From Coptis chinensis (Eukaryota; Streptophyta; Magnoliopsida; Ranunculales; Ranunculaceae): 64,000 bases of DNA. Position numbers and translations under genes: made by a program. Where the stretch lies: assembly GCA_015680905.1 (NCBI GenBank), contig CM027385.1, positions 21,024,501 to 21,088,500 on the forward strand. The letters run 5' to 3'. Positions 1 to 59,630 of the stretch are shown one piece after another (position 1 is the stretch's first letter; the number at the start of each line of letters is the position of its first letter). The notes beneath the pieces are model-generated. The model saw nothing but the letters and a program-made list of their open reading frames with translations, was not told the origin of the DNA and did not search any database.

Positions 1-500
1 ACTCCACTAACACTCCTACCACTCATGCTCTCAAAATTTCTCCCCTCCCTCTGTTGTTCTCGTTAGGTTAGTCTTGAGTCACCCACAAAATTGTTGTTAT
101 TCCCACCAAATTTTCACTTTAAGAATGGACTCATGTCTTTGGAAGCAACGCTCAAGATAAATTCTCCGCCAAAATCAAAATGATAACTTTGATTAGTGTT
201 AAAAGTGACATGGAGTCACTTTTAACACTACCGCAATCAAATTATTATTCCGATGATGAACTTTACAACAATGTTGAAATTAGCTATCCCGATATGACCA
301 ATCATTTACAACAATTGAGGTAATAATGTAATTTGAAAGCTTGTATTTTTATTTATTTTATCAATAACTTAGCAAAACAATTTTCGCCAATAGTATCTAA
401 GATCAAGGGTTTACGCAGGTCTTCAAGATCGCCACTCGTTGATCCGATGGTGTTCGACAGTTGGTATGACTGTTGGAGTTGTGGTTGTGATATCAAGGTC
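1..500. other. 5' flank of MULE-OTU gene, non-coding
   Basis: This is AT-rich sequence upstream of the MULE gene, matched at 59150-59604. It contains a short inverted repeat, AAAGTGACATGGAGTCACTTTT, around 205-227. I see no credible ORF on the plus strand. A 98-codon minus-strand ORF at 353-649 is a shadow of the transposase N-terminal exon. Confidence 0.5.
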
Positions 501-2284
501 TGATAATTTAGGACTTGGGGCGAAGACCTAGAGTTTTCTTGAGTTGCGAAAAGGAGTGGAAAATTTAGACCATCCGTAAAGCCGAAAAAATATTGAACAA
601 AAAACCAAAGAATATAGGCAATCCAGTTCCAAGAAATGTGGTCGTCCATTTGTGTTGAAAGGGGAATTACTTAAACGAAGGTGGATGGATACCGAAAGTG
701 TTATGTGTGGAACTCATAATCATACTATTGGGGAGCATCTTATAGGTCGCGGCATTAAATAGGAAGGTTAAAAAGTGAAGAAAAATTGATTGTTCAGATT
801 TGTCTTTGAGTGGTGTTAAACCGCGTGATATTTTACCCCTTGAAAGAGAGATGACAATAATTTGTCAAACAAAAGCACTTTATACAATTATCGTCACAAG
901 AATCAGTTGGTTCGGTTGAGTGGAAGAAACCAAATGCAAGAATTTCTAAGAAATTTAGAAGAATTTGGGTACACAGAGTTTCATAGGGATAATCCAGTAA
1001 CAGGTGAATGTAGAGATTTGTTGTTTGCACATCCCCAATCAATTCATTTGGCAAAGTGTTTTCCCGAGGTCATTGTCATGGATTGCACGTACAAGACGAA
1101 TCTGTTCAAGATGCCATTGTTTGAAGTTGTTGGGTTCACATCCACGATGAAGACATTCTGTATTGCTTTTGGGTATTTGGAGAGTGAGAAAGAAGGTTCT
1201 TACCTATGGGTTTTGAAGAGGTTGCGTGATATTCTGGACTACAAAGCTACTTCTGTAAAGATAATTACGACTGATTGTGAGTTGGCACTTATGAATGCGA
1301 TAGCTATAGTGTTTCCTGAAGCTGCACACTTCTTGTGTCGAAGTTCACATCGAGGAACATCGAGACAAAGGCCAAAAACATTTGAGAAATTTGTTGAGTA
1401 TGAACAATTTATGTTTATTCAAAAACAGTTGATAACAAAATTTCGTCTTGAAGTTGAGTACTTGGAACACCTACGTTGTTTTAAACTTGAGTACGGAGAT
1501 CATTATGGTGTTGTGGAATACATAGAAGACCAAATGGCTTTCAAGTACAAAGAAAGGTTTGTCTCGGCTTTGATAGATCTCCATATGCATTTTGGTACTT
1601 CGAAAGCAAGAATCGAATTGAAAGTATGCATTCCTCTTTGAAGAGGCATTTTGCGTTCTAGCAATAATGGTAACTTCGCGAAACTTTAATTTGATTAATA
1701 ATCTCCCGACAAACCAAGTGACGTAAATTGAAAGTTCTTTTAATAGGAGCTTGAATCTCTGGGATCATCGTTACAAACAAAACACATATGTGCAACTTAG
1801 AGGGTACATTTCTAGAGATGCATTGGATTTGATAGCAAAAGAGCTAATAAGGTCTGTTAGAGTTGGGACAGATGAAATTCGTTGTCGTTGTGTTTACAAG
1901 AGTATGTATGGGCTTCCTCAGGCGCATGAGTTATGTGAAATTGTTCTAATTGGTAGGGGAAGCATCCCCTTATCTTTGATACACCCTAGGTGGAGACAGC
2001 TTAGTAGCACTCCGATTGATCTTCCTAATGGGTCCTTTGATATTCAGCCCGAGCTTGCACAGATTCAGAAGAAGTTTCAGTCGCTCTCAGATGAACAAAA
2101 GGTTTTGATGCTGAAAAAGTGTGTAGAACTAGGTGATCCAAAGGCAACTTTCAGGCGAGAGCCTCGGGTCAACACCAATGTGAGGGGTAGGCCACCTGGA
2201 ATAAAAATTGGTGTGAAGACTTGTAAAGATAAAAGGGACACAAAGAGAGAGCCTTCAACTTTCGAGTGCACAACAAACAGTTGA
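500..2284 (+). pseudogene. MULE transposase (FAR1-DBD/MULE/SWIM), left copy
   Basis: This is a Mutator-like element transposase that would act in the nucleus to cut and paste the element. A FAR1-type DNA-binding remnant lies at about 620-760 (KCGRPFVLKG, then CGTHNHTIGEH). It is followed by a long ORF at 862-1641 with the first catalytic Asp in VIVMDCTYK (codon 1081) and the second in ITTDCELALM (codon 1273). The third catalytic residue, the Glu of the NRIESMHSSLK motif, is disrupted in this copy near 1600-1640 by a frame change. An ORF at 1751-2284 carries the SWIM zinc finger (CRCVYKSMYGLP.AHEL), in which one expected Cys is Gln. The N-terminal part is also out of frame with the core, so the copy is inactive. 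The right-arm copy preserves the Glu motif. Family assignment is firm; exon limits are estimates. Confidence 0.88.
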
Positions 2285-2330
2285 GGAACAAATTGTAACT
2301 CAAGAAAGCAAGAATAGTAAAGCCAAGAAG

Positions 2331-2974
2331 TTGGTACCATGCAAAAGAAAACCAAGAAGAACTCATATTCAAGTGTTTGTAGATTTACCTGAAATTGAGT
2401 CTAAATGGGATGATGGGCTACGTGACTTAAATCCATTGATACGAGACTTCATTGTGGATTGGCAAGATGTTGAACCGAATGGACATTGTGGATTTAGCGA
2501 TTGCACGATGCTTAGTGGTCTAATGGAGGTGATGCATGGATTACCGTGGAGGGCTCTTATGTTGACAGAGTTGATTTCCCATGAGGCAGATTATACTTCA
2601 ATGATGGGTGGAGAAGAACGAAAAGAAGTTTATCAAGACAAATCTACGATGTACGTTCCATATCGATGAACCCCAAAGAATGGTTTGAACTTCCTTCAAT
2701 GGGATTTTTAGCCGCTAATACTTTTCGGTGTGTCCTTGTCGTCATTGGGGAGAAAGAATGTATGTCATACTTTCCTTTGTGGATCGCTCCTGATCCAACT
2801 CGTGTCCAGATAGCGGCAATAGGCCACATTGGAGGAGGCACACATTTTGTGAAACTCGTGCTTGAAGATGATAGTCCTATTCCGCCACTTGCTCCAGGGT
2901 GGGAGTCATTTGCATGGACAGAAGCTTGGGATTGGGCAACTATAATGGAACCAAGGATCGCGGAAGTGGTATAA
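2331..2974 (+). pseudogene. OTU-like cysteine protease domain of the MULE protein, left copy
   Basis: This is the C-terminal domain of the MULE gene. OTU proteases are papain-like deubiquitinases. The Cys loop is visible as WQDVEPNGHCGF (Cys codon 2487), matching the D-G-x-C-G-F pattern of OTU domains. The general-base region is GGTHFVKLVL (His codon 2843), followed by a P-I-P-P-LAPGW tail also seen in plant MULE/OTU-type proteins. Reading frame changes between the two ORFs near 2660, so this copy is broken. The gap from the transposase ORF (ends 2284) is only about 46 bases, which supports a single fused protein. OTU identity rests on motif recognition without a profile search. Confidence 0.72.
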
Positions 2975-3640
2975 AAAGGGTTCCAAAAAATGTTATGGAT
3001 TTAGACCTTTCGTGAACTATCCTTGTAATCGACGGGTTTTTGGCTTTAATATCTATTTTGTGTATGTGTATATACCGCCATAAATTGCAGAATGTATTAG
3101 AATATGTCAAAATGGTATTAACTAGTTTTTGTTAAGTGCTCAGTAAATAGCATTAAAATGCAAGAATATATATGGTAAGTGCTTTGTCGGTTTAAGGTAG
3201 GAACCAAAGGCGATCGAGCCGGGTGAGCTTTATCACTTGTGTTGTGACAAAAGAACACCAACTGCCTTTACAAAGACAAAGTGAACGAGGGACTGATGGG
3301 TTCTAGAACAAGCTATCTTAATTGTAATAAGAATTCGTGGATTTGCTTAACTAGCAAGGATATTCTGTCATCGCCATACCAATGCAAAGAGATTTTTTTT
3401 CTCTTGTAAATAAACATAAGTCGAGTATGTTTATGATGCTCGCAGATGTACTCTGAATCTCGCTTTTTATAGCTAATTTTGGCACTTGTTTGAACTTGCA
3501 TTAATTTAGTGAATTGGCAATGGAACGAGCAACCCAGAGTCCAATACACATCTTAATCTCTGACAAATGTTTCTTAATCACGTTTTGCACAAACTTTTGT
3601 TTTTCAAACATTCTCTTACAACATTTTTTATAAAGAAAAT
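2975..3640. other. 3' flank of MULE-OTU, non-coding
   Basis: Non-coding, AT-rich sequence matched at about 55990-56640 in the right arm. It would hold the 3' UTR and terminal region of the MULE. I see no RNA gene and no convincing terminal inverted repeat. The minus-strand ORF at 3313-3549 has no recognisable domain. Confidence 0.4.
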
Positions 3641-3960
3641 GTAACGGTGCCACCAATTCCCATTGTTGACAACTCCTCCACTAGAAATTTCATTGCCAAC
3701 CATCGTAGGCTTAGAGTAAGTTCATCTCTTTCATTTTGATTTAGTTATGACATTTTTCATGCTTGTCGAAGTGAGCGGAGTTTTAACGATCTTTGCGTAA
3801 GGGGTATGCGGACAAAACAAAGTTGGTTGGTTTCGCCTCGCCCTCAACTTCTCTCTCATTTTTTCTTCCCCAATACCCTTTCTCCTTCACCCACTCTCTC
3901 TCTCCAAGAGACTCTGGCCACTCCCCCACCGCCATGCAAGATACTACTTGAATGTTCTTA
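3640..3960 (+). pseudogene. N-terminal exon-like fragment before FAR1-like gene, left copy
   Basis: This region matches the right-arm minus-strand ORF at 55506-55877, whose start reads MPPRNEEDQAPKPKKRKC, a basic nuclear-localisation-like stretch. The left copy keeps the part after the basic stretch (PIVDNSSTRNFIANHRRLR) but is interrupted. After GGCTTAG comes a GTAAG-like donor, so it could be exon 1 of the FAR1-like gene 1.3 kb downstream. I do not recognise it as a known domain; the link to FAR1 is inferred from position and strand. Confidence 0.4.
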
Positions 3961-4059
3961 GAATTTGTTGTTTCTCGCCAAAATTTTATAACGGGTCTAA
4001 ATATATTTTATACCCTTATCTTATCTTCTTTTAATGCTACTCTATTGTCCTCCATACTA

Positions 4060-4330
4060 CATAGTGGACTTTAAGTGTTCATACTCCTAGTGGCTCAAAC
4101 AGGGGGTATCTCAAATTGACCCATGAACATTCAGTGTTCATACTCCTAGTGGACTATGAACACCGAATGTTCATACTTTTGTTGGACTATGAACATTCAG
4201 TTGTTCATACCATTGAATTATGAACAGTGAATGTTCATACTCTTTGTCGGACTATGAACAATGAATGTTCATACTCTTGTCGGACTATGAACAACTAATG
4301 TTCATACTCTTGTTGGATGCCTTATACATT
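4060..4330. repeat. Tandem palindrome array, TATGAACA...TGTTCATA (left)
   Basis: Six to seven units contain an imperfect palindrome, TATGAACA, 3-6 bases, then TGTTCATA, separated by a linker like CTCTTGTTGGAC. The two cleanest adjacent units are 33 bp apart. The right-arm partner is 55200-55360. The same palindrome recurs in five other places in the window. Its regular spacing and two-fold symmetry suggest binding sites for a dimeric protein, but no function is shown. Confidence 0.8.
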
Positions 4331-5100
4331 GTCGTGATGTAAACTTTCTTTGTTATATAGTGTTGTGCATAGCTTATTCGTCCGGCCCATATAATGTCGA
4401 TATAAGCTCATGAAAGTAGATATGACACTATAACTGCGCCATACTTATATGTTATGTCACTTCTTACAAAACTTCGGTATGTCACTTACTTTAAGTGACA
4501 TACTTTCGCAAGGTAAAACTCCAATCGTTGACATCATTAATCGCATATGTCGTGATGCTTCCACAATGCCATTTCTAGTTGCATATAATTTGGCATAAAG
4601 TATGATACTTTTCTGTTTATAAAACTATCCTTAATTCTTATGTACCGGTAGTAGACCACGACTCAGACTCTATCAAATTTTGCATAACATACTATACTAT
4701 GTTAATTAAAAGCAGATTTACAATTATGTTTACATAATAATACATTCGCTGCGTTGGGTATGTACTTTGTTATGTATGACGGTATGCTATGATATTTTCC
4801 ATGACATACTATACTATGTATGTTATTTATAATCACATACATCATTATTTTTACATAGTACCTTCAGAAGGTGTTACTTATGACATACTTTCTTGGCTAT
4901 GGACTATTCGATGACATACTATCATCAACATAATGATATAGACAATTATTTGTTTATGGCTCTTTGTTTATACTAATTTTTTTAGTGAAGCGCTTTTAAT
5001 GACATACTTTACTACGTATGAGCTAGGATTTTTGGTGAACACGGTTTTACCCGGCCGGGTAAAGTTGCTGCTGTTTTAGTGGGGAAGAAGTTAGCATTAG
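4330..5100. repeat. AT-rich block with ATGACATACTATACTATGTATG palindromes
   Basis: Intergenic sequence between the GAACA palindromes and the FAR1-like ORF. It is dominated by short palindromic words such as GACATACTATACTATGT and runs of TATGTCA/TGACATA. Its downstream end (4870-5040) matches parts of 8110-8300 and 13285-13450, so it looks like the 5' region of a repeat family. Right-arm partner: 54480-55150. Confidence 0.6.
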
Positions 5101-7100
5101 CATTAGGATTGCTGGAACCATCATTATGGTTTGACTAGAAAGATGCCTAAAGAAGGTGATGCAACCGCCCGCTTTAAATATTTTATGCGTAAGAGTGCCG
5201 AGAATCCCCAGTTTTACTACGCTTATTGATCTAGATCAAAATGGGACTGCAGTAAACTTTTTCTCGGGTTGATGGGAGGTCTCGAGTGCAAGATGAGTAT
5301 TTCGGGATGTTGTCTCTTTTGATACCACATAACGCATTTAATGCATACTCTATGCCTTTTGCCCTTTTCCCGAGTCAATCAAAGATGCAGTCGATTCAGC
5401 TTATTTGGTTCGCTGTTACTGTTATTTGATGAGACGTAAGATACATTCATATGGTTGTTTAATTAAGGCCCGGCTTGCAGCCATGGGTGGTCAGGTCGCC
5501 AACCGCAAATCATCACTTACCGTGATAGAGCGATGATCGCAGCCATTGCAAAAGTGTTCCCCGATACTCGCCATCAAGCATCGCTCTTTGGCATATTATG
5601 CAGAAATTTCAAGAGAAGCTATCCTTTACTAAAATTGATCGAGACAACGGTAACCGACTGAATAACACTTTTTCTCTCCTCATATTTTTTTTGGCTTTTT
5701 TTTTCGGGAAGGGTAATTGTATTAGATAGCAAAGAAAAAAACAAGATACATTTTGTGAGGGCCCGGTAGACCACTCCAACATACATTTCCTAAATTTTAA
5801 GAAATAAATCTGAAATAAGTAGAGTGTTGATTCTCTAACCTATAAACAAAATTGGGTCTATTCTCCCACCATTGCTTCCGCCTTTTGCTAGTGGTCTCTC
5901 CTCGATAAGATTGCTGGTTTTGAAAGAAGATGGTGTACAATAATAGAGAAGAATGAGTTGTCCGCAAATCCTTGGTTGTCGAAATGTATAATATGCGGGA
6001 GAAATGGGTTCCTTGTTATCTCTCGCTGACACATTTTTGCCGGTATGCATAATGACCGGGAGGAGTGAATCGATGAATTCTCGCTATTTAACCAATTCGT
6101 GAAATTCGAAAGCACTATGCTGATGGAGTTTGTACATGGTAATGAGAGATCTTTGGCTTTGATTGCTAGGAATGAAAGAGATGCCGACACCGCGACCGAA
6201 AGCATAGTTCACTTAATTGTGGCTAAAGATGCTTTCCTCCTTATGCATGCCGCTAAGGTCTATAATGATTAATGCATTCAATATATTTAAGGAGCAATTA
6301 GAGAAGGCAAAGATGGAGTACAAAATTGATGGGGACGAGATTGTCAACAATGGAACCGAAGCTACTTGGTGAAATTCAGAGACCCCAGAAGAAGTCCGCT
6401 TGGAAAGTGAGTTTCAATAGAGGAACCTTAGAGGAGACCGGAATGTAAGTATTTTCAGTTTATCGGGTTACTTTGTGGTCACATGTTAAAGATTTTTCAG
6501 CTGCTATTTAAATCAAGAGATTCCAAGGCATTTTCTTTTGAAGCGGTGGATGCAAAAGGCACACACGATAGAGCGGAGTTTCATAATCGATTAGTGGTCG
6601 CCATGAAAACCATGAACTTTTGAGAGTGGCTCATTGTATCAAGGTTGCTTCTCAAGTGGCTTACGACGCGGGAGTAGTGTTGAGGCTTATTCATATTTTA
6701 TAGAAAAGATGGATGAAATGGCTAAGCATGTCTCAACGTTGAATATAGCTTCGAACGAAGGAGACTAAGATAATGAAGTTGAAGAGTCTTTCTTTGATAC
6801 CTCACAGGTTATGATTGTGATATTAATGTTTAATTTGATGGCATATAGGTTTAGTGTTTAATGTTATTTGATTTATTATAATGTTTAATTTGATAAAAAT
6901 ATATATATAATATATATTTTGACTTCCAAATCTTTATTTCAGATATTGATTTTGAATCCCAACATTTCTCAAACAAAAGGGAGGAAGAAGAAAGCAGAGA
7001 GATGGAAATCCCCCAGAGAAATAGCCCTAAACAATCCAGGAAGAATGTGTAGAAACTGTGGAAAATAAGACTCGAGAAATTGTCCAGAGAAAAATAAGAC
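5100..7100 (+). pseudogene. FAR1/FRS-like MULE transposase, left copy
   Basis: This is a FAR1-type transposase-derived protein with a nuclear DNA-binding/transposase role. In order along the plus strand are KMPKEGDAT (about 5140), the FAR1 core YAIDLDQNG...FFWVDGRSR, the first-Asp region SFDTT (around 5310-5340), the second-Asp region ITYQDRAM.AAIAKVFPDTRH (about 5510-5575), the Glu motif RSESMNS (about 6065), the helical region with FVHGNERSLALIARNERD, SWIM remnants at about 6440-6490, and a C-terminal zinc-knuckle exon at 6950-7090 (GRKKKAERW...CRNCGK..SRNCPE). Introns probably separate the exons. Multiple frame changes and stops make it a pseudogene. An in-frame TAA within the zinc knuckle is shared with the right arm, so it predates the duplication. 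The FAR1 DNA-binding domain expected at the N terminus is not visible. Confidence 0.85.
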
Positions 7101-7239
7101 GTAATTTGTGAAATAATGTAAGTATTTTTGGTTGCTAGGTTGCTTGGTTTGTAGGTTAATACATAATCTATGATATGTTAGAAGGGTGCACATGCTTTGT
7201 GCATTTTGGTATTTTTCTGACCCTCTACTTGATATATGA

Positions 7240-8000
7240 AAGTGATTATGCTGTGGTTGTTCATACCTATTTGGGGTATGAACAATCACCGCTCAAACCC
7301 CAATATGAGCTATGAACACTCATTGTTCATATCTTAACATGACCTATGAACACTCATTGTTCATGTGAACAACCATTGATGATGCATTAGCCAATGCATA
7401 TGTCATTGAACTTGGCATATGTGATGCAAGACAAGTTGCCAATGCATATGTCAATGAACTTGGCATATGTCAATGAACCGGAAAATCGGGCAACAAAGTC
7501 GGAAAGACATGGACGCCGCCATATTTGATCGTAAACGCCAAAATAAGCATAACCCATCGCTTTGTCGTGGGCACCACCCTCTCGGCCTTAAATCCATCGC
7601 TTAGGCATTCAAAATCACGCTTTTTTTGCCGCTTTTAGGAAAGTTTTGTTTTTGCTATATCTTTGATAGGAGAGTCCGCTTTTTATTTGGCCACTGTGTT
7701 AGTTATATTTTGATTAGTAGTTTCTTAATATGTGGTTATCCCAAAACTTTCCATTTTGAAAATTTTCAAGTTTTGTGGTAATCGGTATTTCGCCTATATA
7801 AAGGCCGGTAGTCTCAGATTAGAGTTTTCAGTTTTGGTTTTGAGTTAATCATATTAAGAGTTACCACAATTGGACCATGAACAGTTGATATTAAGAGTTA
7901 ATCATATTATGAGCTATGAACATTCTTTGTTCATATCACAATTGGACTATGAACAAAGCTGATTGATCATAGTTCGAGTGTGACGAAAGTATTACTCTTA
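7240..8000. repeat. GAACA/TGTTC palindromes and CATATGNCATTGAACTTGG repeats (left)
   Basis: At 7255-7370 several copies of GAACAnnnnnTGTTCAT follow one another. At 7380-7470 a CATATGTCAATGAACTTGG unit is repeated. At 7860-7975 further TATGAACA/TGTTCATA pairs lie near a stretch resembling a promoter (GCCTATATAAAGGCC at about 7793). Right-arm partner: 51500-52250. I see no gene here. Confidence 0.65.
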
Positions 8001-8109
8001 TTTATAAGCCCATATAAACTACAGACAATTAAGATCTAACAATTAATTATCCTCTTAATTATCGCCTCCATTAATTATTTTTACATAATACATCTGCATC
8101 TGGCGTTGG

Positions 8110-8720
8110 GTATGTAGATACTATGTATGTTCTTTATAATCACATATAACGTTATGAAACATAGTACCTTCGAAAGGTGTTACTTATGACATACTTTCTT
8201 GATGACTATTCGATGACATACTATCATGTATGTCAAACAGTAATGATATATATACATTTGTCTATACTAATTTTTAGTGAATTTTAATCACATACTTTAC
8301 TACGATAATGCTTTGTGAGTTTTGAGATTTTATGCCCCCTTGGAGCCTTGGAGGAATGAATGTTGCACGCCAATGAATGGTACGAAGTTAGGAAAATTTT
8401 CTAGTAGGGTGGAGTCCAATACAATAGCTAACACAATAGCATTTTGGATAGTGATGGATAAATATGATGATCTATTTTGGATGATACTTAGGCACCTAGC
8501 TTTTCGGATAAGTGTGTAACTTCTAACTTATAAATAACTATAAATAATTCCAAAATATAGTATTTGGTTGAATATGGATTTTGTTAGTTGGTTCAAATTT
8601 TCGCTTCATATGATTCTCTTAGGAAATTCAAGAAAAGAGTGGAACTGTAAAAAAAGAGAAGCAATGAAATCTCATGTAATGGCATCTAATTTAAGAGAGA
8701 GAGTGAAAAATGACTTTTTT
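8110..8720 (+). repeat. ~600-bp dispersed repeat, copy 1 (left)
   Basis: Shares with 13285-13810, in the same orientation, a run from GACATACTTTCTTGA through GGAGCCTTGGAGGAATGAATG to AAGAGAAGCAATGAAATC and ATGGCATCTAAT. The upstream part also matches 4870-5040, in front of the FAR1-like gene. It is probably the end region of a FAR1-type element left as a fragment. The short ORF at 8322-8519 inside it has no recognisable domain. Right-arm partner: about 50790-51400. Confidence 0.75.
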
Positions 8721-8879
8721 CGCTGAGAGAGAGTTAGATATGGCATTTTCTTTCCTTTGTGAGAGAGAGTTAGAGAAAACTTTTAGATGGTTTCTTTTGA
8801 GGTTTTTTGAGAGAGAACATAACAACAAGAAGTACCAAATCCAAAATAAATTCTAACTTCATTAAGTCATGACCCAATA

Positions 8880-9990
8880 ATTACATAGTCATAAAAACCA
8901 AAGCACCTAATGAGTAATCAAATCCTCATGAAATTATCCTTAACAAAATTGACATTTTCAAAAAATGGACAAAATGGATCATCTCTTGTCCCCACATTCT
9001 AAAATCTAAAGTATTTGTTATTTTAATTTTGTTTATTTTTGGCAGACTTCACAAAAAAAACTATTATTACAAGTGTGCCATTGGTCCAAAAAAAAAAAAA
9101 AAAAAAAAACAATTATTACAAGTATGCCATTGGTCCCAAAAAGTTGAATCAAAAACCCTTAAAACTTAAAACGATCCAAGGATAGGTCGTTTGGGACTTA
9201 TTACAAAACGACTTGGCCACACCGCTTGGGACTTGGTCCAAACAAACCAAACGTGGCCATTTGTCGCTTGGGAAGAAGTCCAAAAAAGAACTTCAAAAAG
9301 TTTTTTCAAAGTTCAAAAAACTTTAAAACGACAATGGCGACATGGCCATATTCGGATCGAAGTCCAAAACGATGTGGCCATGTTGTTTGGGATTTGGACT
9401 TAGAAAAAATTCCCTTTAGAAAAACAATATGGCCACACCGCTTGGACTAAGTCTCCATCGATATGGCCACACCATTTGGACTTAGTCCAAAACGATGTGG
9501 CCATGTCATTTGGGATTTGAACTTTGAAAAAATATAAAGTTCTGTTTTTTTTTGGGCGCTTCTTCCCAAACGGTGTGGGTCGTTTGGGACTTAGTACCCA
9601 AACCACCTATCCGGTCGCTTAAGTTTGGGATTTCAATTCAATTTTTGGGGACCAATGGCATACTTGTAATAATGGTTTTTTTTTAGATTTTTGAAACCAA
9701 TGGCACACTTGTAATAATTGTTTTTTGGGAGTCCGCCCAACACAAATTGGGGTCCCAGTCATCTAAATGGGACTCATAAACAACCAAAGCAACTAATGAT
9801 CCAACAAAATATACATTTTCAAAGACCATATACAATGGATAATCACATTAGCATCCAAGATCCACATTCTAAATTTATAGGCAAAAACTAACTAAAGCAA
9901 TCAATGACCCCCGAAAAAAGATATGCAGTTTCAAAGAACAAACACAAAATGGATCACCACTTTAGTTCCCACATTCCAAATCATTTTTGG
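8880..9990. repeat. ~105-bp degenerate repeats flanking the palindromic MITE
   Basis: A motif ACCAAAGCAACTAATGA ... ACATTTTCAAA ... AAATGGATCA ... CCACATTCTAAA occurs at about 8895-9005, 9785-9875 and 9890-9990. The copies on either side of the MITE suggest that the MITE inserted into, or was bracketed by, an older tandem repeat. No coding potential is visible. Confidence 0.5.
9040..9757. mobile_element. Palindromic MITE related to MULE at 61.9 kb
   Basis: The two halves are inverted copies. Each end has a doubled terminal motif (ATTACAAGTGTGCCATTGGT, then ATTACAAGTATGCCATTGGT), and the far end reads CCCAACACAAATTGGGGTCC. The interior is made of repeated GTGGCCA(C/T) and GTTTGGGACTTAGTCC words. 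The same terminal motif (TACAAATGTGCCATTGG at about 61895) and interior words (62400-62690) are found at the 5' end of the MULE beginning near 61854. This is therefore probably a non-autonomous derivative of that MULE family. In the left arm the halves are adjacent; in the right arm they are separated by 2.3 kb. Confidence 0.72.
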
Positions 9991-12020: not shown

Positions 12021-12029
12021 TTGGCTTTA

Positions 12030-47519: not shown

Positions 47520-47850
47520 CCCAAAGGAATGGCCACACCGTTTGGGAAAGAAATTTTTTCCATCCTTTGGCCATCACCATTTGGACTTAGTCCAAAAATT
47601 GATCCATGTCATTTTTTATTTGAACTTTGAAAAATATAAAGTTTGAGTTTGGGGAAGTTATCTTAGGTTGGGACTTAGGATTGAGGTCAACTTTGAGTAA
47701 GTCCCAAGATGTTATCCGGTCAGTTTAAGTTTGGGGTTTCAATTCAATTTTTTGGGGACCAATGGCATACTTGTAATAATGGTTTTTTAGATTTTTGAAA
47801 CCAATGGCACACTTGTAATAATTGTTTTTGATCTTCCTAACACAAATTGG
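47520..47850 (+). mobile_element. Half of the palindromic MITE (right, flipped side)
   Basis: Carries GGCCACACCGTTTGG, GACTTAGTCC and the doubled end GACCAATGGCATACTTGTAA / AACCAATGGCACACTTGTAA. It matches left 9480-9757 in the same orientation. Confidence 0.7.
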
Positions 47851-48299
47851 ATTAAATGGGACTAATAAAAAACCAAAGCAACTAATGAACCAACAAAATA
47901 TACATTTTCAGCACCATATACAATGGATAATCACATTAGCATCCAAGATCCACATTCTAAATTTATAGGCAAAAACTAACTAAAGCACCGAATGACCCCA
48001 CGCCACCAAACTTAAAGAATAAACACAAAATGGATCACCATTTTAGTTCCTACATTCCAAATCATTTTTATAGAGATGATATAGCAACCATTCCCTACGC
48101 CTCTCTAGCCTTTTAACACCATGAACACCCTTGCTTTTTGTCATCATCAAGGAGCTCTAAAGCTTTAATGAAAGTAATGCTATCTAGGTCGCACATTTTC
48201 TAATTCAAAAATGATCTTTGCTTCTTCCGATTAGGGTTCAACACTAGAACCAGTAATTTGTTTCTTCATATTCAATGTTAAACATTTTCAGAAGTCAAC

Positions 48300-50065: not shown

Positions 50066-50099
50066 ACGGTGTCGTCTAACACGTGTTCCAAAACTTTAT

Positions 50100-50460
50100 T
50101 TTGGCTTTCTAAGTCAAATCCCAAAACAACATGGCCACATCGTTTTGGACTCAAATCCGCATGGTATGGCCATGTCGTTTGGGATTTGAACTTTGAAAAA
50201 ATTTAAAGTTCTGTTTTTGGGTTCTTGACCGGTGGGCGGGTCGTTGGACTAAGTCCCAAACGGTGTGGCCAAGTCGCTTGTAATAAGTCCCAAACGACCT
50301 ATCCGGTCGCTTAAGTTTGGGGTTTTCGAATTCAACTTTTTGGGACCAATGGCATACTTGTAATAATTGTTTTTTTTTTTTGAGATTTTTTTGAGACCAA
50401 TGGCACACTTGTAATAATAGTTTTTTTTGTGGGAGTCTGCCCAACACAAATTGGGGTCCG
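50100..50460 (-). mobile_element. Other half of the palindromic MITE (right)
   Basis: Matches left 9040-9400 inverted. Its outer end is better preserved than in the left arm: AACACAAATTGGGGTCC at about 50443-50459. Confidence 0.7.
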
Positions 50461-50789
50461 TAAGTAACAAATACTTTAGATTTTAGAATGTGGGGACAAG
50501 AGTGATGATCCATTTTGTCCATGTTGCTGAAAATGTCAATTTTGTTAAGGATAATTTCATGAGGATTTGATTACTCATTAGGTGCTTTGGTTTTTATGAC
50601 TATGTAATTATTGGGTCATGACTTAATGAAGTTAGAATTTATTTTGGATTTGGTACTTCTTGTTGTTATGTTCTCTCTCAAAAAACCTCAAAGAAACCAT
50701 CTAAAAGTTTTCTCTAACTCTCTCACAAAGGAAAGAAAATGTCATATCTAACTCTCTCACAACTAAAAGTCATTTTTTTCACTCTCTCT

Positions 50790-51400
50790 CTCTTAAATTA
50801 GATGCCATTACATGAGATTTCATTGCTTCTCTTTTTTGGATTCCACTCTTTTCTTCGAATTTCCTAAGAATCATATGAAACGAAAATTTGAACCAACTAA
50901 CAAAATCCATATTCAACCAAATACTATATTTTGGAATTATTTATAGTTATTTATAAGTTCCAAGTTACACACTTATCCTAAAAGCTAGGTGCCTAAGTAT
51001 CATCCAAAATAGATCATCATATTTATCCATCACTATCCAAAATGCTATTGTGTTAGCTATTGTATTGACTCCACCCTACTAGAAAATTTTCCTAACTTCG
51101 TACCATTCATTGACGCGTGCAACATTCATTCCTCCAAGGCTCCAAGGGAGCCGAAAATCTCAAAACTCACAAAGCATTATATCGTAGTAAAAGTATGTGA
51201 TTAAAATTCACTAAAAATTAGTATAGACAAATGTATATATATCATTCTCGTTTGACATACATGATAGTATGTCATCCTAATAGAGTCATCCAAGAAAGTA
51301 TGTCATAAGTAACACCTTTCAAGGTACTATGTTTCATAACGCTATATGTGATTATAAAGAACATACATAGTATCTACATACCCAACGCTGCACCTAATGT
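50790..51400 (-). repeat. ~600-bp dispersed repeat, copy 1 (right)
   Basis: Partner of 8110-8720. Confidence 0.75.
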
Positions 51401-51499
51401 ATTATGTAAAAATAATTAATGGAGCGATAATTAAGAGGATAATTAATTGTTAGATCTTAATTGTCTCAGTAGTTTATATGGGCCTATAAATAAGAGTAA

Positions 51500-52250
51500 T
51501 ACTCGTCACACTCCGAACTATGATCAATCATCGCTGATAGTCCAATTGTGATATGAACAAAGAATGTTCATAGCTCATAATATGATTAACTCTTAATATC
51601 ACTGTTCATAGTCCAATTGTGGTAACTCTTAATATGATTAACTCAAAACCAAAACTGAAAACTCTAATACGACTACCAGCCTTTTATATAGGCGAAATAC
51701 CCCCGATTACCACAAAACTTGAAAATTTTCAAAAATGGAAAGTTTTGGGATAACCACATATTAAGAAACTACTAATCAAAAATATAACTAACACAGTGGC
51801 CAAATAAAAACGGACTCTCCTATCAAAAGATATAGCAAAAACAAAACTTTCCTAAAATGGCAAAAAACGTGATTTATGAAATTTCCTAAACGATGGATTT
51901 AAGGCCCGAGGGTGGTGCCCACGCAAAGCAGTGGGTTATGCTTATTTTGACGTTTCTGATCAAATATGGCCGCGTCCATGTCTTTCCGACTTTGTTGCCC
52001 GCTTTTCCAGTTCATTGACATATGCCAAGTTCATTGACATATGCATTGGCAACCTGTACTGCATCACATATGCCAAGTTCAATGACATATGCATTGGCTA
52101 ATGCATCATCAATGGTTGTTCACATGAACAATGAGTGTTCATAGGTCATGTTAAGATATGAACAATGAGTGTTCATAGCTCATATTGGGGTTTGAATAGT
52201 GATTGTTCATACCCCAAATAGGTATGAACAACCACAACGCATAATCACTT
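51500..52250. repeat. GAACA/TGTTC palindromes and CATATGCC repeats (right)
   Basis: Partner of 7240-8000. Units such as GAACAATGAGTGTTCATA occur at 52125-52230, and CATTGACATATGCC units at 52015-52090. Confidence 0.65.
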
Positions 52251-52384
52251 TCATATATCAAGTAGAGGGTCAGAAAAATACCAAAATGCACAAAGCATGT
52301 GCACCCTTCTAACACATATCATAGATTATGTATTAACCTACAAACCAAGCAACCTAGCAACCAAAAATACTTACATTTTTCACA

Positions 52385-54361
52385 AATTACGCCTTTATTT
52401 TTCTCTTGGACAATTTCTCGAGTCTTATTTTCCACAGCTTCTACACATTCTTCCCCGGATTGTTTAGGGCTATTTCTCCTCTGGGGATTTCCATCTCTCT
52501 GCTTTCTTCTTCCTCCCTTTTGTTTGAGAAATGTTGGGATTCAAAATCAATATCTGAAATAAAAAGATTTGGAAGTCAAAATATATATTATATATATATT
52601 TTTATCAAATTAAACATTATAATAAATCAAATAACATTAAACACTAAACCTATATCAAATTAAACATTAATATCACAATCATAACCTGTGGAGGGTATCA
52701 AAGAAAGACTCTTCAACTTCATTATCTTCGCCTCCTTCGCTCAAGCTATATTCAACGTTGAGACATGCTTAGCCATTTCATCCATCTTTTCTATAAAATA
52801 TGAATAAGCCTCAACACTACTCCCCGCGATCGTAAGCCACTTGAGAAGCAACCTTGATACAATGAGCCACTCTCAAAAGTTCATGGTTTTCATGGCCGCC
52901 ACTAATCCAAAGATGAAACTCCGCTCTATACGCGTGTGTGCCTTTTGCATCCACCGCTTCAAAAGAAAATGCCTTGGAATCTCTTCGATTTCGGAACGCT
53001 GAAAAATCTTTAACATGTGACCACAAAGTAACCCCATAAACTGAAAAATACTTACATTCACAGTCTCCCTCTAAGGTTCCTCTATTGAAACTCACTTTCC
53101 AAACGGACTTCTTCTGCGGGTTTCTGAATTTCACCATGTAGCTTCCGGTTCCATTGTTGACAATCTCGTCCCCATCAATTTTGTACTCCATCTTTGCCTT
53201 CTCTAATTGCTCCTTAAATATATTGAATGCATTAATCGTATAGACCTTCGCAGCATGCATAAGGAGGAAAGCATCTTTAGCCACAATTTGTGAACTATGC
53301 TCGGTCATGTAATCAAGATCTCTTTCATTCCTAGCAATCAAAGCCAAAGATCTCTCATTACCATGTACAAACTCCATCAAAGATAGTGCTCGAATTTACT
53401 TAATTGGTCGTGAACGAGAATTCATCGATTCACTCCTCCCAATCCAGATGCATACCAAAGAAAAAAATGTGTCACCGAGATAACAAGGAACCCATTTCTC
53501 CCGCATATTATACATTTCTGTCAACCAAGGATTTGCAGACAACTCATTCTTCTCTATTATTGTACACCGTCTTCTTTCAAAACCAGCAATCTTATACGAG
53601 GAGAGACCCTAGCAAAAGGCCAGAAGCAATGGTGGGAGAATAGACCCAATTTTGTTTATAGGTTAGAGAATCAACACTCTACTTATTTCAGATTTATTTC
53701 TTAAAAATTTAGGAAATGTATGTTGGAGTGGTCTACCCAGGGCCCTCACAAAATGTATACTGTTTTTTCTTTGCTATCTAATACATACAATTACCCTTTA
53801 GCAAAAAAAAAATACGAGGAGAGAAATAGTGTTATTCAGGTCAGTTACCAGTGTCTCAATTTTAGTAAAGGATAGCTTCTCTTGAAATTTCTGCATAATA
53901 TGCCAAAGACAGTAACGATGACGAGTATCAGGGAACACTTTTGCAATGGCTGCAGTCATCGCTCTATCCTGGTAAGTGATGATTGATTGCAGTTGGCGAC
54001 GACCACCCATGGCTGCAAGCCGGCCTTAAAAACAACCATATGAATGTATCTTCTCGTCTCATCAAGTAACGGTACAAGAACCAAATAACTGAATCGACCG
54101 CATGATGCCGATTGACTCCGGTAAAAGGGCAAAAGGCATAGAGTATGCATTCGTGACGCGTTATGTGGTATCAAAAGAGACAACATCCCCGAAATACTCA
54201 TACTGCACTCGAGACCTCCCATCAACCCAGAAAAAGTTTACTGCAGTTCCATTTTGATCTAGATCAATAGCGTAGTAAAACTGGGGATTCTCGGCACTCT
54301 TTTGCATAAAATATTTAAGCACGGCAGTTGCATCACCTTCTTTAGGCATCTTTCTAGTCAA
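52385..54361 (-). pseudogene. FAR1/FRS-like MULE transposase, right copy
   Basis: This copy is better preserved than the left one. 54161-54361 encodes KMPKEGDATAVLKYFMQKSA, YAIDLDQNGTAV, FFWVDGRSRVQYEYFGDVVS and FDTT (first Asp). 53798-54010 encodes SIITYQDRAMTAAIAKVFPD and CLWHIM (second Asp, CxxH-like). 52817-53380 is a 187-codon ORF with FVHGNERSLALIARNERD and the SWIM-type CECKYFSVYG (the second Cys-His pair lies in a shifted frame). The C-terminal zinc-knuckle exon is near 52385-52540, with the same in-frame stop as the left copy. Introns and several frame changes separate the parts. Confidence 0.87.
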
Positions 54362-54479
54362 ACCATAATGATGGTTCCAAAGAATCCTTATTTGTAATGC
54401 TAACCCAACTTCTTCCCCACTAAAAACAAATTTAACTTTTTACCGACAGTAAAACCGTGGTTCACCAAAAATCCTAGCT

Positions 54480-55150
54480 CATAATGTAGTAAAGTATGTC
54501 ATTAAAAACGCTTCACTAAAAATTAGTATAAACAAATAATTGTCTATATCATTATGTTGATGATAGTATGTCATCCTCCTAATAGTCCATAGCCAAGAAA
54601 GTATGTCATAAGTAACACCTTACGGAAGGTACTATGTAAAAATAATGATGTATGTTATTATAAATAACATACATAGTATAGTATGTCATGGAAAATATCA
54701 TAGCATACCGTCATACATAACAAAGTACATACCCAACGCGGTACGAATGTATTATGTAAAAATAATTGTAAATATGCTTTTAATTAACATACATAGTATA
54801 GTATGTTATGCAAAATTTCATAGAGTACAGAGTACGTGGTCTACTACCCGGTACATAAGAATTAAGGATAGTTTTATAAACAGAAAGTATATCATACTTT
54901 ATGCCAAATATATGCAACTAGAAATGGCATTGTGGAAGCATGCGACATATGCAGTGAGATGTCAATGATTGGAGTTTTTACCTTGCGAAAGTATGTCACT
55001 TAAAGTAAGTGACATACCGAATTGGCCGCGATTTTTGTAAGAAGTGACATAACATATAAGTATGACAGCTTATAGTGTCATATCTACTCATGAGCTTATA
55101 TACCGACATTATATGGACGACACTGAATAAGCTATGCACAACACTATATA
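54480..55150. repeat. AT-rich TATGTCA/TGACATA palindrome block (right)
   Basis: Partner of 4330-5100; includes ACATACATAGTATAGTATGT words at 54668 and 54788. Confidence 0.6.
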
Positions 55151-55194
55151 ACAAAGAAAGTTTATATCTACGACAATGTATAAGCTGTCCAACA

Positions 55195-55365
55195 AGAGTA
55201 TGAACATTCGTTGTTCATAGTCCGACAAGAGTATGAACATTCATTGTTCATAGTCCAACAAGAGTATGAACATTCACTGTTCATAATTCAATGGTATGAA
55301 CATTGAATGTTCATGGGTCAATTTGAGATACCCCCTGTTTGAGCCACTAGGAGTATGAACACTTA
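55195..55365. repeat. Tandem palindrome array TATGAACA...TGTTCATA (right)
   Basis: Partner of 4060-4330. Units at about 55200, 55232 and 55264 are spaced 32-33 bases apart (AGAGTATGAACATTC, TTGTTCATAGTCC). Confidence 0.8.
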
Positions 55366-55505
55366 AAGTCCACTATGTAGTATGGAGGGACAATAGAGTA
55401 GCATTGAAGATAAGATAAGAGAGTGAAGATAAGATAAGGGTATAAAATATATTTCACCCGGTTATAAAATTTTGGCAGAGAACAACAAATTCTAAGAACA
55501 TTCAA

Positions 55506-55877
55506 CTAGTATACCGCATGGCAGTGGGGGAGTGAGCGGAGCCTTGGGGGAGAGAGAGAGTTGGGTGAAGGAGAAAGGGTATTGGGGCTTAAGAAAAAAA
55601 TGAGAGAAGTTGAGGACGTGAGACGAAAACCAACCAACTTGGTTTTGTCCGCATACCCCCCCTTCGCTAAGATCGTTAAGCTCCGCTCACTTTCGACAAG
55701 CATGAAAAATGTCATAACTAAATCAAAATGAAAGAGAGATGAACCTACTCTAAGCCTACGATGGTTGGCAATGAAATTTCTAGTGGAGGAGTTGTCAACA
55801 ATGGGAATTTGTGGCACTTCGTTACATTTTCTTTTTTTCGGTTTGGGTGCTTGATCCTCCTCGTTTCGTGGAGGCAT
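55506..55877 (-). pseudogene. N-terminal exon-like ORF before FAR1-like gene (right)
   Basis: A 123-codon ORF starting MPPRNEEDQAPKPKKRKC. A basic KPKKRK stretch suggests nuclear import. After FIANHRRLR a donor-like AGTAGGTT occurs, and the rest of the ORF is probably intron. It is co-oriented with the FAR1-like gene 1.1 kb downstream and could be its first exon. No FAR1 DNA-binding domain lies between them. Confidence 0.4.
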
Positions 55878-56639
55878 GTTTAAAATGACGGTTTAGAACA
55901 TTGATAGTTAGGGTTTAATGATAATTGTAATCTCCATGAAGTCATTGCTACATATGATATCCCAAACTTTATAAAAAATGTTTGAAAAACAAAAGTTTGT
56001 GCAAAACGTGATTAAGAAACATTTGTCAGAGATTAAGATGTGTATTGGACTCTGGGTTGCTCGTTCCATTGCCAATTCACTAAATTAATGCAAGTTCAAA
56101 CAAGTGCCAAAATTAGTTATAAAAACAGGATTCAGAGTACACTGCAGAGCATCATAAACATACTCTGACTTGTGTTTACAAGAGAAAAAAAAAATCTCTT
56201 TGCATTTCTTCAGATGACAGAATATCCTTGCTAGTTCGCCGATCCACTGAATTCTTATTACTTAATTAAGATAGCTTGTTCTAGAACCCATCAGGTCCCT
56301 CGCTCACTTTGTCTTTAAAAAGCAACCGGTGTTCTTTTGTCACAACACAAGTGATAAAGCTCACCGGCCTGAAGCTCGATACGCCTTTGGTTCCTACCTT
56401 AAACCGACAAAGCACTTACCATATTCTTGCATTTTAATGCTATTTACAGAGCACTTAACAAAAACTAGTTAATACCATTTCTGACATATTCTAATACATT
56501 CTGCAATTTATGACAGTATATACTATATACACATACACAAAATAGATATTAATGCCAAAAAACCCTGTCAGTACAAGGATAGTTACGAAAGGTCTAAATC
56601 CATAACATTTTTTGGAACCCTTTTATACCACTTCACGAT

Positions 56640-57240
56640 CCTTGGTTCCATTATAGTTGCCCAATCCCAAGCTTCTGTCCATGCAAATGACTCCCACCCT
56701 GGAGCAAGTGGCGGAATAGGACTATCATCTTCAAGCACGAGTTTCACAAAATGTGTGCCTCCTCCAATGTGGCCTATTGCCGCTTATCCGACACGAAGTT
56801 GGATCAGAGTCCACAAAGGAAAGGAAAGTATGACATACATTCTTTCTCCAAATGACGACAAGGACACACCGAAAAGTATTAGCGCTAAAAATCCCATTGA
56901 AGGAAGTTCAAACCATTCTTTGGGGTTCATCGTGATATGGAACTCAGTACATCGTCGTAGATTTGTCTTGATCGCTTCTTTTCGTTCTTCTCCACCCATC
57001 ATTGAAGTATAATCTGCCTCATGGGAAATCAACTCTGTCAACATAAGAGCCCTCACAAGAATCCATGCATCACCTCCATTAGACCCTAAGCATCGTGGTA
57101 ATCGCTAGCTTAAATCCACAATGTCCATTCGGTTCAACATCTTGCCAATCCACAATGAAGTCTCAGATCAATGGATTTAAGTCAATGAGCCCATCATCCC
57201 ATTTAGACCCAATTTTAGGTAAATCTACAAACACTTGAAG
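56640..57240 (-). pseudogene. OTU-like protease domain of the MULE protein, right copy
   Basis: Partner of left 2331-2974. ORF 56784-57056 keeps MRALMLTELISHEADYTSMM and EWFELPSMGFLA in one frame, unlike the left copy. The Cys-loop (about 57105-57135) and the THFVKLVLEDD motif (about 56725-56760) lie in other frames. The gene is broken. Confidence 0.7.
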
Positions 57241-57348
57241 ATGAGTTCTTCTTGGTTTTCTTTTGCATGGTACCAACTTCTTGGCTTTACTATTCTTGCT
57301 TTCTTGAGTTACAATTTGTTCCTCAACTGTTTGTGTATACTTTCGAAG

Positions 57349-59157
57349 TCAAGGCTCTCTCTTTGTGTCCCTTTTATCTTTACAAGTCTTCACACCAATT
57401 TTTATTCCAGGTGGCCTACCCCTCACATTGGTGTTGACCCGAGGCTCTCGCCTGAAAGTTGCCTTTGGATCACCTAGTTCTACACACTTTTTCAGCATCA
57501 AAACCTTTTGTTCATCTGAGAGCGACTGAAACTTCTTCTGAATCTGAGCAATCTCGGGCTGAATATCAAAGTTAGGAAGATCAATCGGAGTGCTACTAAG
57601 CTGTCTCCACCTAGGGTGTATCAAAGATAAGGGGATGCTTCCCCTACCAATTAGAACAATTTCACATAACTCATGCGCAAGGAAGCCCATACATACTCTT
57701 GTAAACACAACGACAACGAATTTCATCTGTCCCAACTCTAACAGACCTTATTAGCTCTTTTGCTATCAAATCCAATGCATCTCTAGAAATGTACCCTCTA
57801 AGTTGCACATATGTGTTTTGTTTGTAACGATGATCCCAGAGATTCAAGCTCCTATTAAAAGAACTTTCAATTTCTGTCACTTGGTTTGTCAGGAGATTAT
57901 TAATCAAATTAAAGTTTCGGCAGAAGTTACCATTATTGCTAGAACGCAAATGCCTCTTCAAAGAGGAATGCATACTTTCAATTCGGTTACTGCTCGAAGT
58001 ACCAAAATGCATATGGAGATCTATCCAAGCCGAGACAAACCTTTCTTTGTACTTCGAAAGCCACTGGTCTTCTATGTATTCCACAACACCATAATGATCT
58101 CCGTACTCAAGTTTAAAACAACGTAGGTGTTCCAAGTACTTAACTTCAGTACGAGCTATTATCACTGTTTCGAACATAAACATAAATTGTTCATACTCAA
58201 CAAATTTCTCAAATGTTTTTTTGGCCTTTGTCTCGATGTTCCTCCTGATGTGAACTCGACACAAGAAGTGTGCAGCTTTAGGAAACACTATAGCTATCGC
58301 ATCCATAAGTGCCAACTCACAATCAGTCGTAATTATCTTTACAGAAGTAGCTTTGTAGTCCAGAATATCACGCAACCTCTTCAAAACCCATAGGTAAGAA
58401 CCTTCTTTCTCACTCTCCAAATACCCAAAAGCAATACAGAATGTCTTCATCGTGGATGTGAACCCAACAACTTCAAACAATGGCATCTTGAAGACATTCG
58501 CCTTGTAATGCGTGCAATCCATGACAATGACCTCGGAAAACACTTTGCCAAATGAATTGATTGGGGATGTGCAAACAACAAATCTCTACATTCACCATTC
58601 TTTGGATTATCCCTATGAAACTCGTGGTACCCAAATTCTTCTAAATTTCTTAGAAATTCTTGCATTTGGTTTCTTCCACTCAACCGAACCAACCGATTCT
58701 TGTGACGATAATTGTATAAAGTGCTTTTGTTTGACAAATTATTGTCATCTCTCTGTTTCAAGAGGGGTAAAATTTCACGCGGTTTAACACCACTCAAAGA
58801 CAAATCCTGAACAATCAATTTTTCTTCAGCTTTTAACCTTCCGACGAATGCACGACCAATAAGATGCTCCCCAATAGTATGATTATGAGTTCCACACATA
58901 ACACTCAAGATCCATCCACCTTCGTTTAAGTAATTCCCCTTTCAACACAAATGGATGACCACATTTCTTCGAACCGATTGCCTATATTCTTTGGTTTTTT
59001 TGTTCAATATTTTCGGCTTTATGGATGGTCTAAATTTTCCACTCCTTTCGCAACTCAAGAAAACTCTAGGTCTTCGCCCAAGTCCCGAATTATCAGACCT
59101 TGATATCACAACCACAACTCCAACAGTCATACCAACTGTCGAACACCATCGGATCAA
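57349..59157 (-). pseudogene. MULE transposase (FAR1-DBD/MULE/SWIM), right copy
   Basis: The 290-codon ORF 57671-58543 holds the whole catalytic core: VIVMDCTHYK (first Asp), ITTDCELALM (second Asp), FLCRVHIRRN, and NRIESMHSSLKRHL (Glu), then most of the SWIM region (CRCVYKSMYGLPCA). The last SWIM His continues in ORF 57349-57735 (AHELCEIVLIGRGS). 58447-58908 carries the N-terminal part, including CGTHNHTIGEHLIGRAFVGRL and SLSGVKPREI. The FAR1-type N-terminal segment is at 58942-59157. Breaks near 58530, 57680 and 58930 separate these pieces, so the copy is not functional as it stands, but the core is the best preserved in the window. Confidence 0.9.
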
Positions 59158-59630
59158 CGAGTGACGATCTTCGAAGACCTGCGTAAACCCTTGATCTTAG
59201 ATACTATTGACGAAAATTGTTTTTTGCTAAGTTATTGATAAAATAAATAAAAAATACAAGCTTTCAAATTACATTATTACCTCAATTGTTGTAAATGATT
59301 CGGTCATATCGGGATAGCTAATTTCAACATTGTTGTAAAGTTCATCATCGAATAATAATTTGATTGCAGTAGTGTTAAAGCTGACTCCATGTCACTTTTA
59401 ACACTAATCAAAGTTATCATTTTGATTTTGGCGGGAGAATTTATCTTGAACGTTGCTTCCAGCACATGAGTCCATTCTTAAAGTGAAAATTTGGTGGGAA
59501 TAACAACAATTTTGTGGGTGACTCAAGACTAACCTAAGAGAACAACAGAGGGAGGGGGAGAAATTTTAGAGAGCATGAGTGGTAGGAGTGTTCGTGGAGT
59601 AGTAAGTACGGTGAAGAGCTCGTTTGAATT

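What the first reader, a model, noticed from the sequence alone, without database searches (positions are those of the whole stretch)
1..59604. A ~25 kb inverted duplication with a 9.4 kb spacer
Two arms of about 25 kb face each other around a single-copy spacer. Both arms contain the same nested MITE insertions with the same target duplications (e.g. TAAAAAGTT at 20909/21057 and its complement at 38346/38493), so they are copies of one locus. The scale is far beyond ordinary foldback elements, and the single-copy spacer argues against a simple read-level foldback artefact. Possible origins are template switching, a break-fusion event, or recombination between oppositely oriented elements. An assembly join of two haplotypes in opposite orientation is also possible.
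Basis: seen in the sequence. Interest (0 to 1): 0.8.

Follow-up and report, generated by a model that had tools for sequence, protein, structure and literature searches.

The report
Head-to-head copy of a plant locus
A stretch of transposon-rich, apparently plant DNA appears twice, facing itself across a 9.4 kb middle piece; the two copies seem nearly the same once likely sequencing errors are discounted, and whether the mirror structure exists in the chromosome or was made by the assembly cannot be settled from the sequence alone.

Summary
The inverted repeat is in the sequence: 1-25199 pairs with 59600-34618 on the other strand in five collinear blocks of 87-95% raw identity, around a spacer with no arm-scale partner. 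Three corrections. (1) The left arm is cut by the window start, so 25 kb is a minimum and the outer breakpoints are unseen. (2) Most differences look non-evolutionary: they sit at CG and CHG sites, come in clusters with ts:tv near 1, and leave exact runs up to 500 bp; isolated substitutions are 66 of 12185 sites, 0.54%. This looks like methylation-linked long-read consensus error. (3) 47529-50108 is reversed relative to its arm and is a superposition of both orientations in register, best read as a consensus error. One difference looks biological: a 428 bp hAT-type MITE at 23558-23985 is replaced in the other arm by a footprint-like 15 bp, so the arms are separate descendants of one locus. A genomic inverted duplication (foldback or inverted template switching) and a misjoin of two alleles are about equally likely; I lean by a hair to the former. 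Reads across 25.2, 34.6, 47.5 and 50.1 kb would decide. Known kind of structure; modest interest.

The parts
1..25199 (+). Left arm (visible part; continues beyond the window start)
   Evidence: Self-blastn and alignment
34618..59600 (-). Right arm (visible partner of the left arm)
   Evidence: Self-blastn and alignment
25200..34617 (.). Spacer with no arm-scale partner in the window; holds a weak DDE_Tnp_4 (PIF/Harbinger-type) transposase remnant on the - strand
   Evidence: PF13359 E 8.4e-05, 22.7 bits against a cut-off of 24.8, at 32280-32531
26091..26101 (+). GGGGTGTGACA, resembling the 3' end of a plant LTR (recalled motif); if so the left copy runs on past the arm boundary to a natural end
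   Evidence: no primer-binding-site pattern found
9429..12028 (+). Left version of the 2.6 kb internal block; next to no superposition (24 bases on the band)
47529..50108 (+). Right version of the block: direct orientation, with 15 exact runs (11-24 bp) of the collinear orientation inside 47600-49880
23558..23985 (+). 428 bp hAT-type MITE, left arm only: 16 bp TIR CATAGTACAAAATATC, 8 bp target duplication CTTTCAAC at 23550-23557 and 23986-23993
   Evidence: positions counted by hand
35808..35822 (-). CTTTCAAGTTTCAAC, footprint-like remnant at the same site in the right arm
20909..21065 (+). MITE with TAAAAAGTT target duplications, shared by both arms
38346..38501 (-). Partner of the shared MITE in the right arm
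862..2284 (+). MULE transposase pieces, left arm
   Evidence: PF10551 E 1.2e-22 for 862-1641; 1751-2284 had no Pfam hit; frame breaks seen by eye in the alignment
57349..58908 (-). MULE transposase pieces, right arm
   Evidence: PF10551 E 1.3e-20 for 57671-58543; 57349-57735 and 58447-58908 had no Pfam hit
5467..6269 (+). Second MULE-derived (FAR1-like, name recalled) gene remnant, left arm
   Evidence: PF10551 22.7 bits, below its cut-off of 27.6, for 5467-5658; 6069-6269 had no hit
52820..54439 (-). Partner of the second MULE-derived remnant, right arm
   Evidence: PF10551 42.9 bits for 53801-54025; no Pfam hit for 52820-53395, 53959-54237, 54164-54439 or 53399-53608
55837..55972 (-). Stretch of 136 bp of which 123 bp are gapped in the left arm at about 3616-3630
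   Evidence: Gaps of 77 and 46 bp
4135..4201 (+). 67 bp (two units of a 33 bp tandem repeat) present in the left arm only

Best explanation
Two descendants of one transposon-rich, probably heavily methylated plant locus lie head to head around a 9.4 kb single-copy loop. By a narrow lead this is a genomic inverted duplication: a broken or stalled strand folded back or switched to the opposite strand about 9.4 kb away, copied the arm in reverse, and left the loop single-copy; the left side is the original and the right side, which stops inside a repeat at 34618, is the new copy. Afterwards a hAT-type MITE left the right copy and both copies gained small changes. The 6-13% of differing columns in the collinear blocks is mainly basecall/consensus error at methylated CG and CHG sites, and the reversed block at 47.5-50.1 kb is a consensus error. 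Shown: copies of one locus, the MITE difference, the CG/CHG signature, the superposition. Inferred: that the signature is methylation-linked error, that the structure is in the chromosome, that fold-back or template switching made it, and which side is original.
For: Shared nested insertions. The arms are not the same molecule read twice: MITE with TIR and 8 bp target duplication in one arm, CTTTCAAGTTTCAAC in the other, plus indels of 123 and 67 bp. The two inner flanks show no match over 150 bases to each other beyond 25199/34618, as expected at a rearrangement breakpoint but needing a coincidence if the arms were plain alleles. No N at any junction. Error signature: CGC/GCG, CCG/CGG, CAG/CTG, CGA/TCG, ACG/CGT lead the enrichment (log2 1.87-3.34) and the other 27 of 32 trinucleotide classes are below 1 (all five blocks); 796 of 1832 CG/CHG motifs in the collinear blocks differ (43%) against 11.7-20.3% for six control motifs. 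Precedent: inverted repeats 30 kb apart fold back in ssDNA in yeast (PMC10164571, abstract); foldback loops can be many thousands of nt (PMC7467729, passages).
Against: No read data. The outer breakpoints are outside the window, so allelic homology without end is not excluded. Isolated divergence of 0.54% and one MITE difference is also what two alleles would show. The right arm contains an evident consensus artefact, so the assembly there is unreliable. No junction microhomology can be tested because the pre-duplication sequence beyond 34617 is unknown. A test for a cleaner outer flank failed: on a hand-chosen first part of a direct duplication at 60249/61016, 3 of 25 CG/CHG motifs differ (p 0.0017), but on the whole pair 9 of 33 do (p 0.076). 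The LTR reading that makes the left copy the original rests on a recalled motif and no primer-binding site was found. Substitutions more than 8 bp from any CG/CHG are still 1.18% with ts:tv 59:59, so either error reaches there too or the true divergence is higher than 0.5%.
Confidence: 0.47

Rival explanations
1. Assembly misjoin: left and right arms are two alleles (or two paralogues) of one locus, joined head to head at 34618 by a chimeric or foldback read or through a repeat; no inverted duplication exists in the chromosome.
For: Allele-like divergence (66 isolated substitutions in 12185 sites) with one MITE presence/absence; error-like consensus; chimeric consensus inside the right arm; outer ends unseen; ONT genomic foldback reads at about 0.55-0.6% and one example with about 2 kb between halves (PMC12870357, Results).
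Against: The inner flanks show no match over 150 bases right from the boundary, so a false join must fall exactly where homology stops; no N.
Confidence: 0.45
2. Pure read-level foldback: the same molecule read on both strands.
For: Arm-loop-arm would fit a read whose second strand starts at a nick (my inference); foldback reads occur in ONT data.
Against: The arms differ by a MITE with target duplication against a footprint-like remnant, and by indels of 123 and 67 bp, which one molecule should not carry; the passages I read show no foldback with a 9.4 kb gap.
Confidence: 0.03
3. Transposition-driven origin: sister-chromatid transposition of hAT-type elements made the inverted copy.
For: Apparent hAT-type MITE mobility at the locus; sister-chromatid transposition of Ac can give flanking inverted duplications (PMC3744419, passages).
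Against: I saw no TIR or target duplication at either inner boundary on reading the sequence and its inverted repeats (25 of 89 pairs listed); the MITE sits 1.2 kb inside the arm.
Confidence: 0.05

Closest known systems
Foldback inversions / inverted duplications with a single-copy loop (yeast, cancer)
   Same: Arm, single-copy loop, inverted arm; wide spacing and loops of many kb are on record
   Different: Outer ends and junction homology unknown here; TE-rich, apparently plant, diverged copies; genomic reality unproven
Large palindromes of mammalian sex chromosomes
   Same: Long arms of high identity (PMC8981503, start of abstract in a search listing)
   Different: Gene conversion was not shown here and the arms are transposon nests
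Long-read foldback and false-duplication assembly artefacts
   Same: Inverted repeat of one locus in an error-rich consensus, with a chimeric block
   Different: The arms carry a biological-looking difference (MITE against footprint-like remnant), so a single-molecule artefact does not suffice

Membership tests
Genomic inverted duplication (foldback type) | Two copies of one locus in opposite orientation | tested here: met
   in the assembled sequence
Genomic inverted duplication (foldback type) | Single-copy loop between the arms | tested here: met
   Within the window only
Genomic inverted duplication (foldback type) | Short inverted homology at the loop ends of the parent sequence | not testable with these tools
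   Parent sequence beyond 34617 is not available; the 21 bp at 25179-25199/34618-34638 is part of the arms
Genomic inverted duplication (foldback type) | Present on single DNA molecules / in the chromosome | not testable with these tools
   No reads, depth or map; no genome held
Genomic inverted duplication (foldback type) | Finite outer breakpoint | tested here: inconclusive
   Left arm cut by the window; indirect test on the right flank 3 of 25 on a chosen part, 9 of 33 and p 0.076 on the whole pair
Allelic misjoin (false duplication) | Allele-level divergence between copies | tested here: met
   0.54% isolated substitutions, 66 of 12185 sites; 0.46-0.70% with flanks of 10 or 5 bp
Allelic misjoin (false duplication) | Homologous sequence on both sides beyond the inner boundary | tested here: not met
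   No match over 150 bases between 25200+ and 34617-, only short MITE-type inverted matches such as 26588-26629/34445-34486; a chimera at the junction would still be possible
hAT-type MITE with excision footprint | 8 bp target duplication, short TIRs, altered duplication left after excision | tested here: met
   TSD CTTTCAAC, 16 bp TIR, remnant CTTTCAAGTTTCAAC; assignment to hAT from TSD length is recalled knowledge

The most novel reading that the evidence does not exclude
A real inverted duplication with arms of at least 25 kb and a 9.4 kb loop in methylated plant heterochromatin, in which the 2.6 kb block at 47.5-50.1 kb exists in both orientations in the sampled plant (a flip-flop segment), so that the consensus is a blend of the two states.
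Probability: 0.07. Interest if true: 0.55.

Novelty: new member of a known kind. Interest (0 to 1): 0.25.

Why it matters
If real, it is a fairly recent kilobase-loop inverted duplication in transposon-rich DNA, marked by a MITE that left only one copy; such loci could feed long hairpin RNAs and instability (general knowledge, not tested). If an artefact, it is a worked example of how methylation-linked long-read errors can inflate divergence (6-13% of columns differ while isolated substitutions are near 0.5%), and of an internal sign, in-register superposition of both orientations, that exposes a doubtful inversion without reads.

Tried and rejected
Sequence evolution as the main source of the 6-13% differing columns: rejected because, counting each gap once, 55-70% of runs between differences in the four collinear blocks are 0-2 columns long (12-26% expected) while 25 runs of 100 or more occur in all (1.75 expected) (the earlier count gave 67-70% but counted every gap column as an event); because ts:tv is 604:583 in clusters against 47:19 for isolated changes; and because CG/CHG motifs carry them.

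Local template-switch mutations as the source of the clusters: of 239 cluster sequences of 8-60 bp, 6 had an inverted and 2 a direct match of 12 bp or more within 2 kb, against 8 whose best of 20 shuffles reached 12; the four strongest were all in the right-hand reversed block, which led to the superposition.

A clean biological inversion of the 2.6 kb block: rejected as the likeliest reading, because the collinear sequence shows through across the block. A first test with too narrow a register band (plus or minus 80) missed part of it. The excess difference of this block (14.9% substitutions against 3.2-7.6% in the collinear blocks; 5.5% against 1.2% far from CG/CHG) is therefore not taken as age, but I did not separate the patches from the rest, so real extra divergence is not excluded.

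A cleaner outer flank as a sign of a finite duplication: first seen on a part that I had chosen, not borne out on the whole pair. I lowered the duplication from 0.50 to 0.47 and raised the misjoin from 0.42 to 0.45 for that.

Flanking inverted repeats in the left arm that could drive a flip: none at E 0.01. MULE terminal inverted repeats bounding the arm: the 12 best matches shown in each comparison were short tandem-repeat families. LTR primer-binding site: 0 matches with up to 2 mismatches, 3.2 expected by chance; no convincing 5' LTR end. Rfam 0 hits at gathering score, tRNA 0, no PDB relative of one fragment. Genome search: no genome held, so no organism, read depth or upstream sequence. 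Pfam hits to E2F, dioxygenase and AvrE models at E 0.02-0.09 are taken as chance. Two literature searches (listings only) did not lead me to a paper on CHG-linked nanopore consensus errors; that link is my inference.
Full report
Observation. Self-comparison confirms a long inverted repeat: five collinear blocks pair 1-9406 and 11870-25199 with 59600-50106 and 47507-34618, at 87-95% raw identity. The spacer 25200-34617 has only short MITE and satellite-type matches elsewhere in the window (listing matches over 150 and over 100 bases). The match stops at 59600 only because the left arm runs off position 1, so the outer ends of the repeat are not in view and 25 kb is a lower bound.

The arm is not collinear throughout. 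Left 9608-12028 matches right 47713-50108 in the direct orientation, extending to 9429-12028 and 47529-50108. At first this looks like an internal inversion. But inside the right block all 12 exact inverted self-matches of 12 bp or more share a centre between 48734 and 48797: 327 bases are covered on one band, against at most 24 in the left block and in five control stretches, and a whole-window scan puts this centre first by far (501 bases in 12 runs; next 172 in 4). Mapped against the left arm, R 47600-49880 is covered by 1512 bases of direct-orientation match and 219 bases of collinear match, 174 of them collinear only, in 15 exact runs of 11-24 bp on diagonals 59403-59471, between those of the flanking collinear alignments (59366-59377 below, 59512 above) (the scan admitted diagonals within 260 of 59430, and two of the 15 runs are low-complexity). 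Of 20 matches of the right block to the opposite-orientation left sequence, 17 lie where the right block is not identical to the left in direct orientation. Two sequences laid over each other in register is what a consensus program could make from pieces in both orientations; I know of no biological process that would. I therefore read this block as a consensus artefact.

The differences between arms. In the aligned blocks the four collinear ones have 3.2-7.6% substitutions and 6.4-12.7% differing columns. They are not spread like mutations: counting each gap once, 55-70% of runs between differences are 0-2 columns long where 12-26% is expected, yet exact runs reach 500 bp. Substitutions with no other difference within 8 bp are 66 of 12185 sites (0.54%), ts:tv 47:19; 0.70% and 0.46% with 5 and 10 bp; the clustered ones are 604:583. 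By trinucleotide, over all five blocks, the five most enriched of 32 classes are the four CG classes and CAG/CTG (log2 1.87-3.34); the rest are below 1. Of 1832 CG/CHG motifs in the collinear blocks of both arms 796 differ in the partner (43%; 26-55% by block), against 11.7-20.3% for six control motifs. The substitution rate more than 8 bp from such motifs is 1.18% (118 of 9999, ts:tv 59:59) and 9.7% nearer. Difference rate rises with G+C (Spearman 0.45, 147 bins). On the window's + strand an arm has C where its partner has T, or the equivalent on the complement, 372 times against 280 the other way (binomial p 0.0004), so the differences follow the strand of the assembly. CG and CHG are the main methylation contexts of plants; deamination would give transitions, not clusters with ts:tv 1. 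The best reading is basecall and consensus error at methylated cytosines in a long-read assembly, with true divergence near 0.5-1%. That the platform is nanopore is inference. Inverted duplicates are themselves known to lower nanopore accuracy (PMC7229812, abstract and Results read), but nothing in what I read ties that effect to CG/CHG.

Both arms seem to carry errors. In the MULE stretch (about the first 2.7 kb of the alignment) some clusters break the frame in the left arm and some in the right, while each arm still gives a MULE domain hit (PF10551 80.7 bits left, 74.1 bits right). I judged the sides by eye against conserved MULE motifs (partly recalled) and made no formal count.

A difference that error is unlikely to make. 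The left arm holds a 428 bp element at 23558-23985 with 16 bp perfect terminal inverted repeats and 8 bp target duplications CTTTCAAC. The right arm has CTTTCAAGTTTCAAC at 35822-35808: both copies of the duplication, one base lost and one altered at the joint. That is the form of a hAT excision footprint (recalled knowledge; small footprints are described for Ac/Ds in PMC3744419, passages). So the element was probably in the ancestor of both arms and left one of them. With indels of 123 bp and 67 bp this speaks against one molecule read twice.

Inner boundaries. The left copy runs on past 25199 to what looks like the 3' end of an LTR (GGGGTGTGACA, 26091-26101), while the right copy stops at 34618 against sequence with no match over 150 bases to the left flank. 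If that reading holds, the left side is the original arrangement and 34618 the new junction. It rests on a recalled motif; no primer-binding site or 5' end was found.

Duplication or misjoin. For a genomic duplication: unrelated inner flanks and no gap. Against: unseen outer ends, allele-like divergence, an assembly evidently wrong inside the right arm, and no reads. I looked for a sign that the flank just outside is cleaner, as a finite duplication might predict. On the first part of a direct duplication at 60249/61016, which I had chosen after seeing the alignment, 3 of 25 CG/CHG motifs differ (p 0.0017); on the whole pair 9 of 33 do (p 0.076), so the test is inconclusive. In a direct pair strand-specific errors would cancel anyway. 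Three open stretches of a MULE at 62927-64000 lie in one frame, so that flank has stops but no frameshift there; the stretch is short. Foldback reads make up about 0.55-0.6% of ONT genomic reads, one shown with about 2 kb between halves (PMC12870357, Results and Discussion read). In vivo, inverted repeats 30 kb apart can fold back in single-stranded DNA in yeast (PMC10164571, abstract), and foldback loops of many thousands of nt are reported (PMC7467729, passages). I put a genomic duplication at 0.47 and a misjoin of alleles or paralogues at 0.45.

Content. Both arms carry MULE transposase remnants, MITEs and a 55 bp tandem repeat; the spacer has a weak DDE_Tnp_4 hit (below cut-off). The organism is not known; plant is inferred from the CHG signature and the element types.

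Noticed in passing
47529-50108: Consensus superposed from both orientations of one 2.6 kb block, detectable by in-register inverted self-matches.
   Followed up: yes
23550-23993 and 35808-35822: hAT-type MITE kept in one arm and apparently excised from the other, leaving a footprint-like 15 bp.
   Followed up: yes
17813-17911 and 41506-41604: A truncated relative (93% over 99 bp) of the same MITE is present in both arms.
   Followed up: no
18812-21498, 26176-26553, 37912-40601: A 55 bp tandem repeat in both arms and in the spacer, in several separate arrays.
   Followed up: no
60249-60646 and 61016-61410: Direct duplication just outside the right arm; the first 166 of 406 alignment columns are identical and the rest diverge.
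   Followed up: partly
62927-64000: Another MULE, three open stretches in one frame, running to the window end.
   Followed up: no
17163-17220 and 42181-42223: AT dinucleotide array, 58 bp in the left arm and 43 bp in the right.
   Followed up: no
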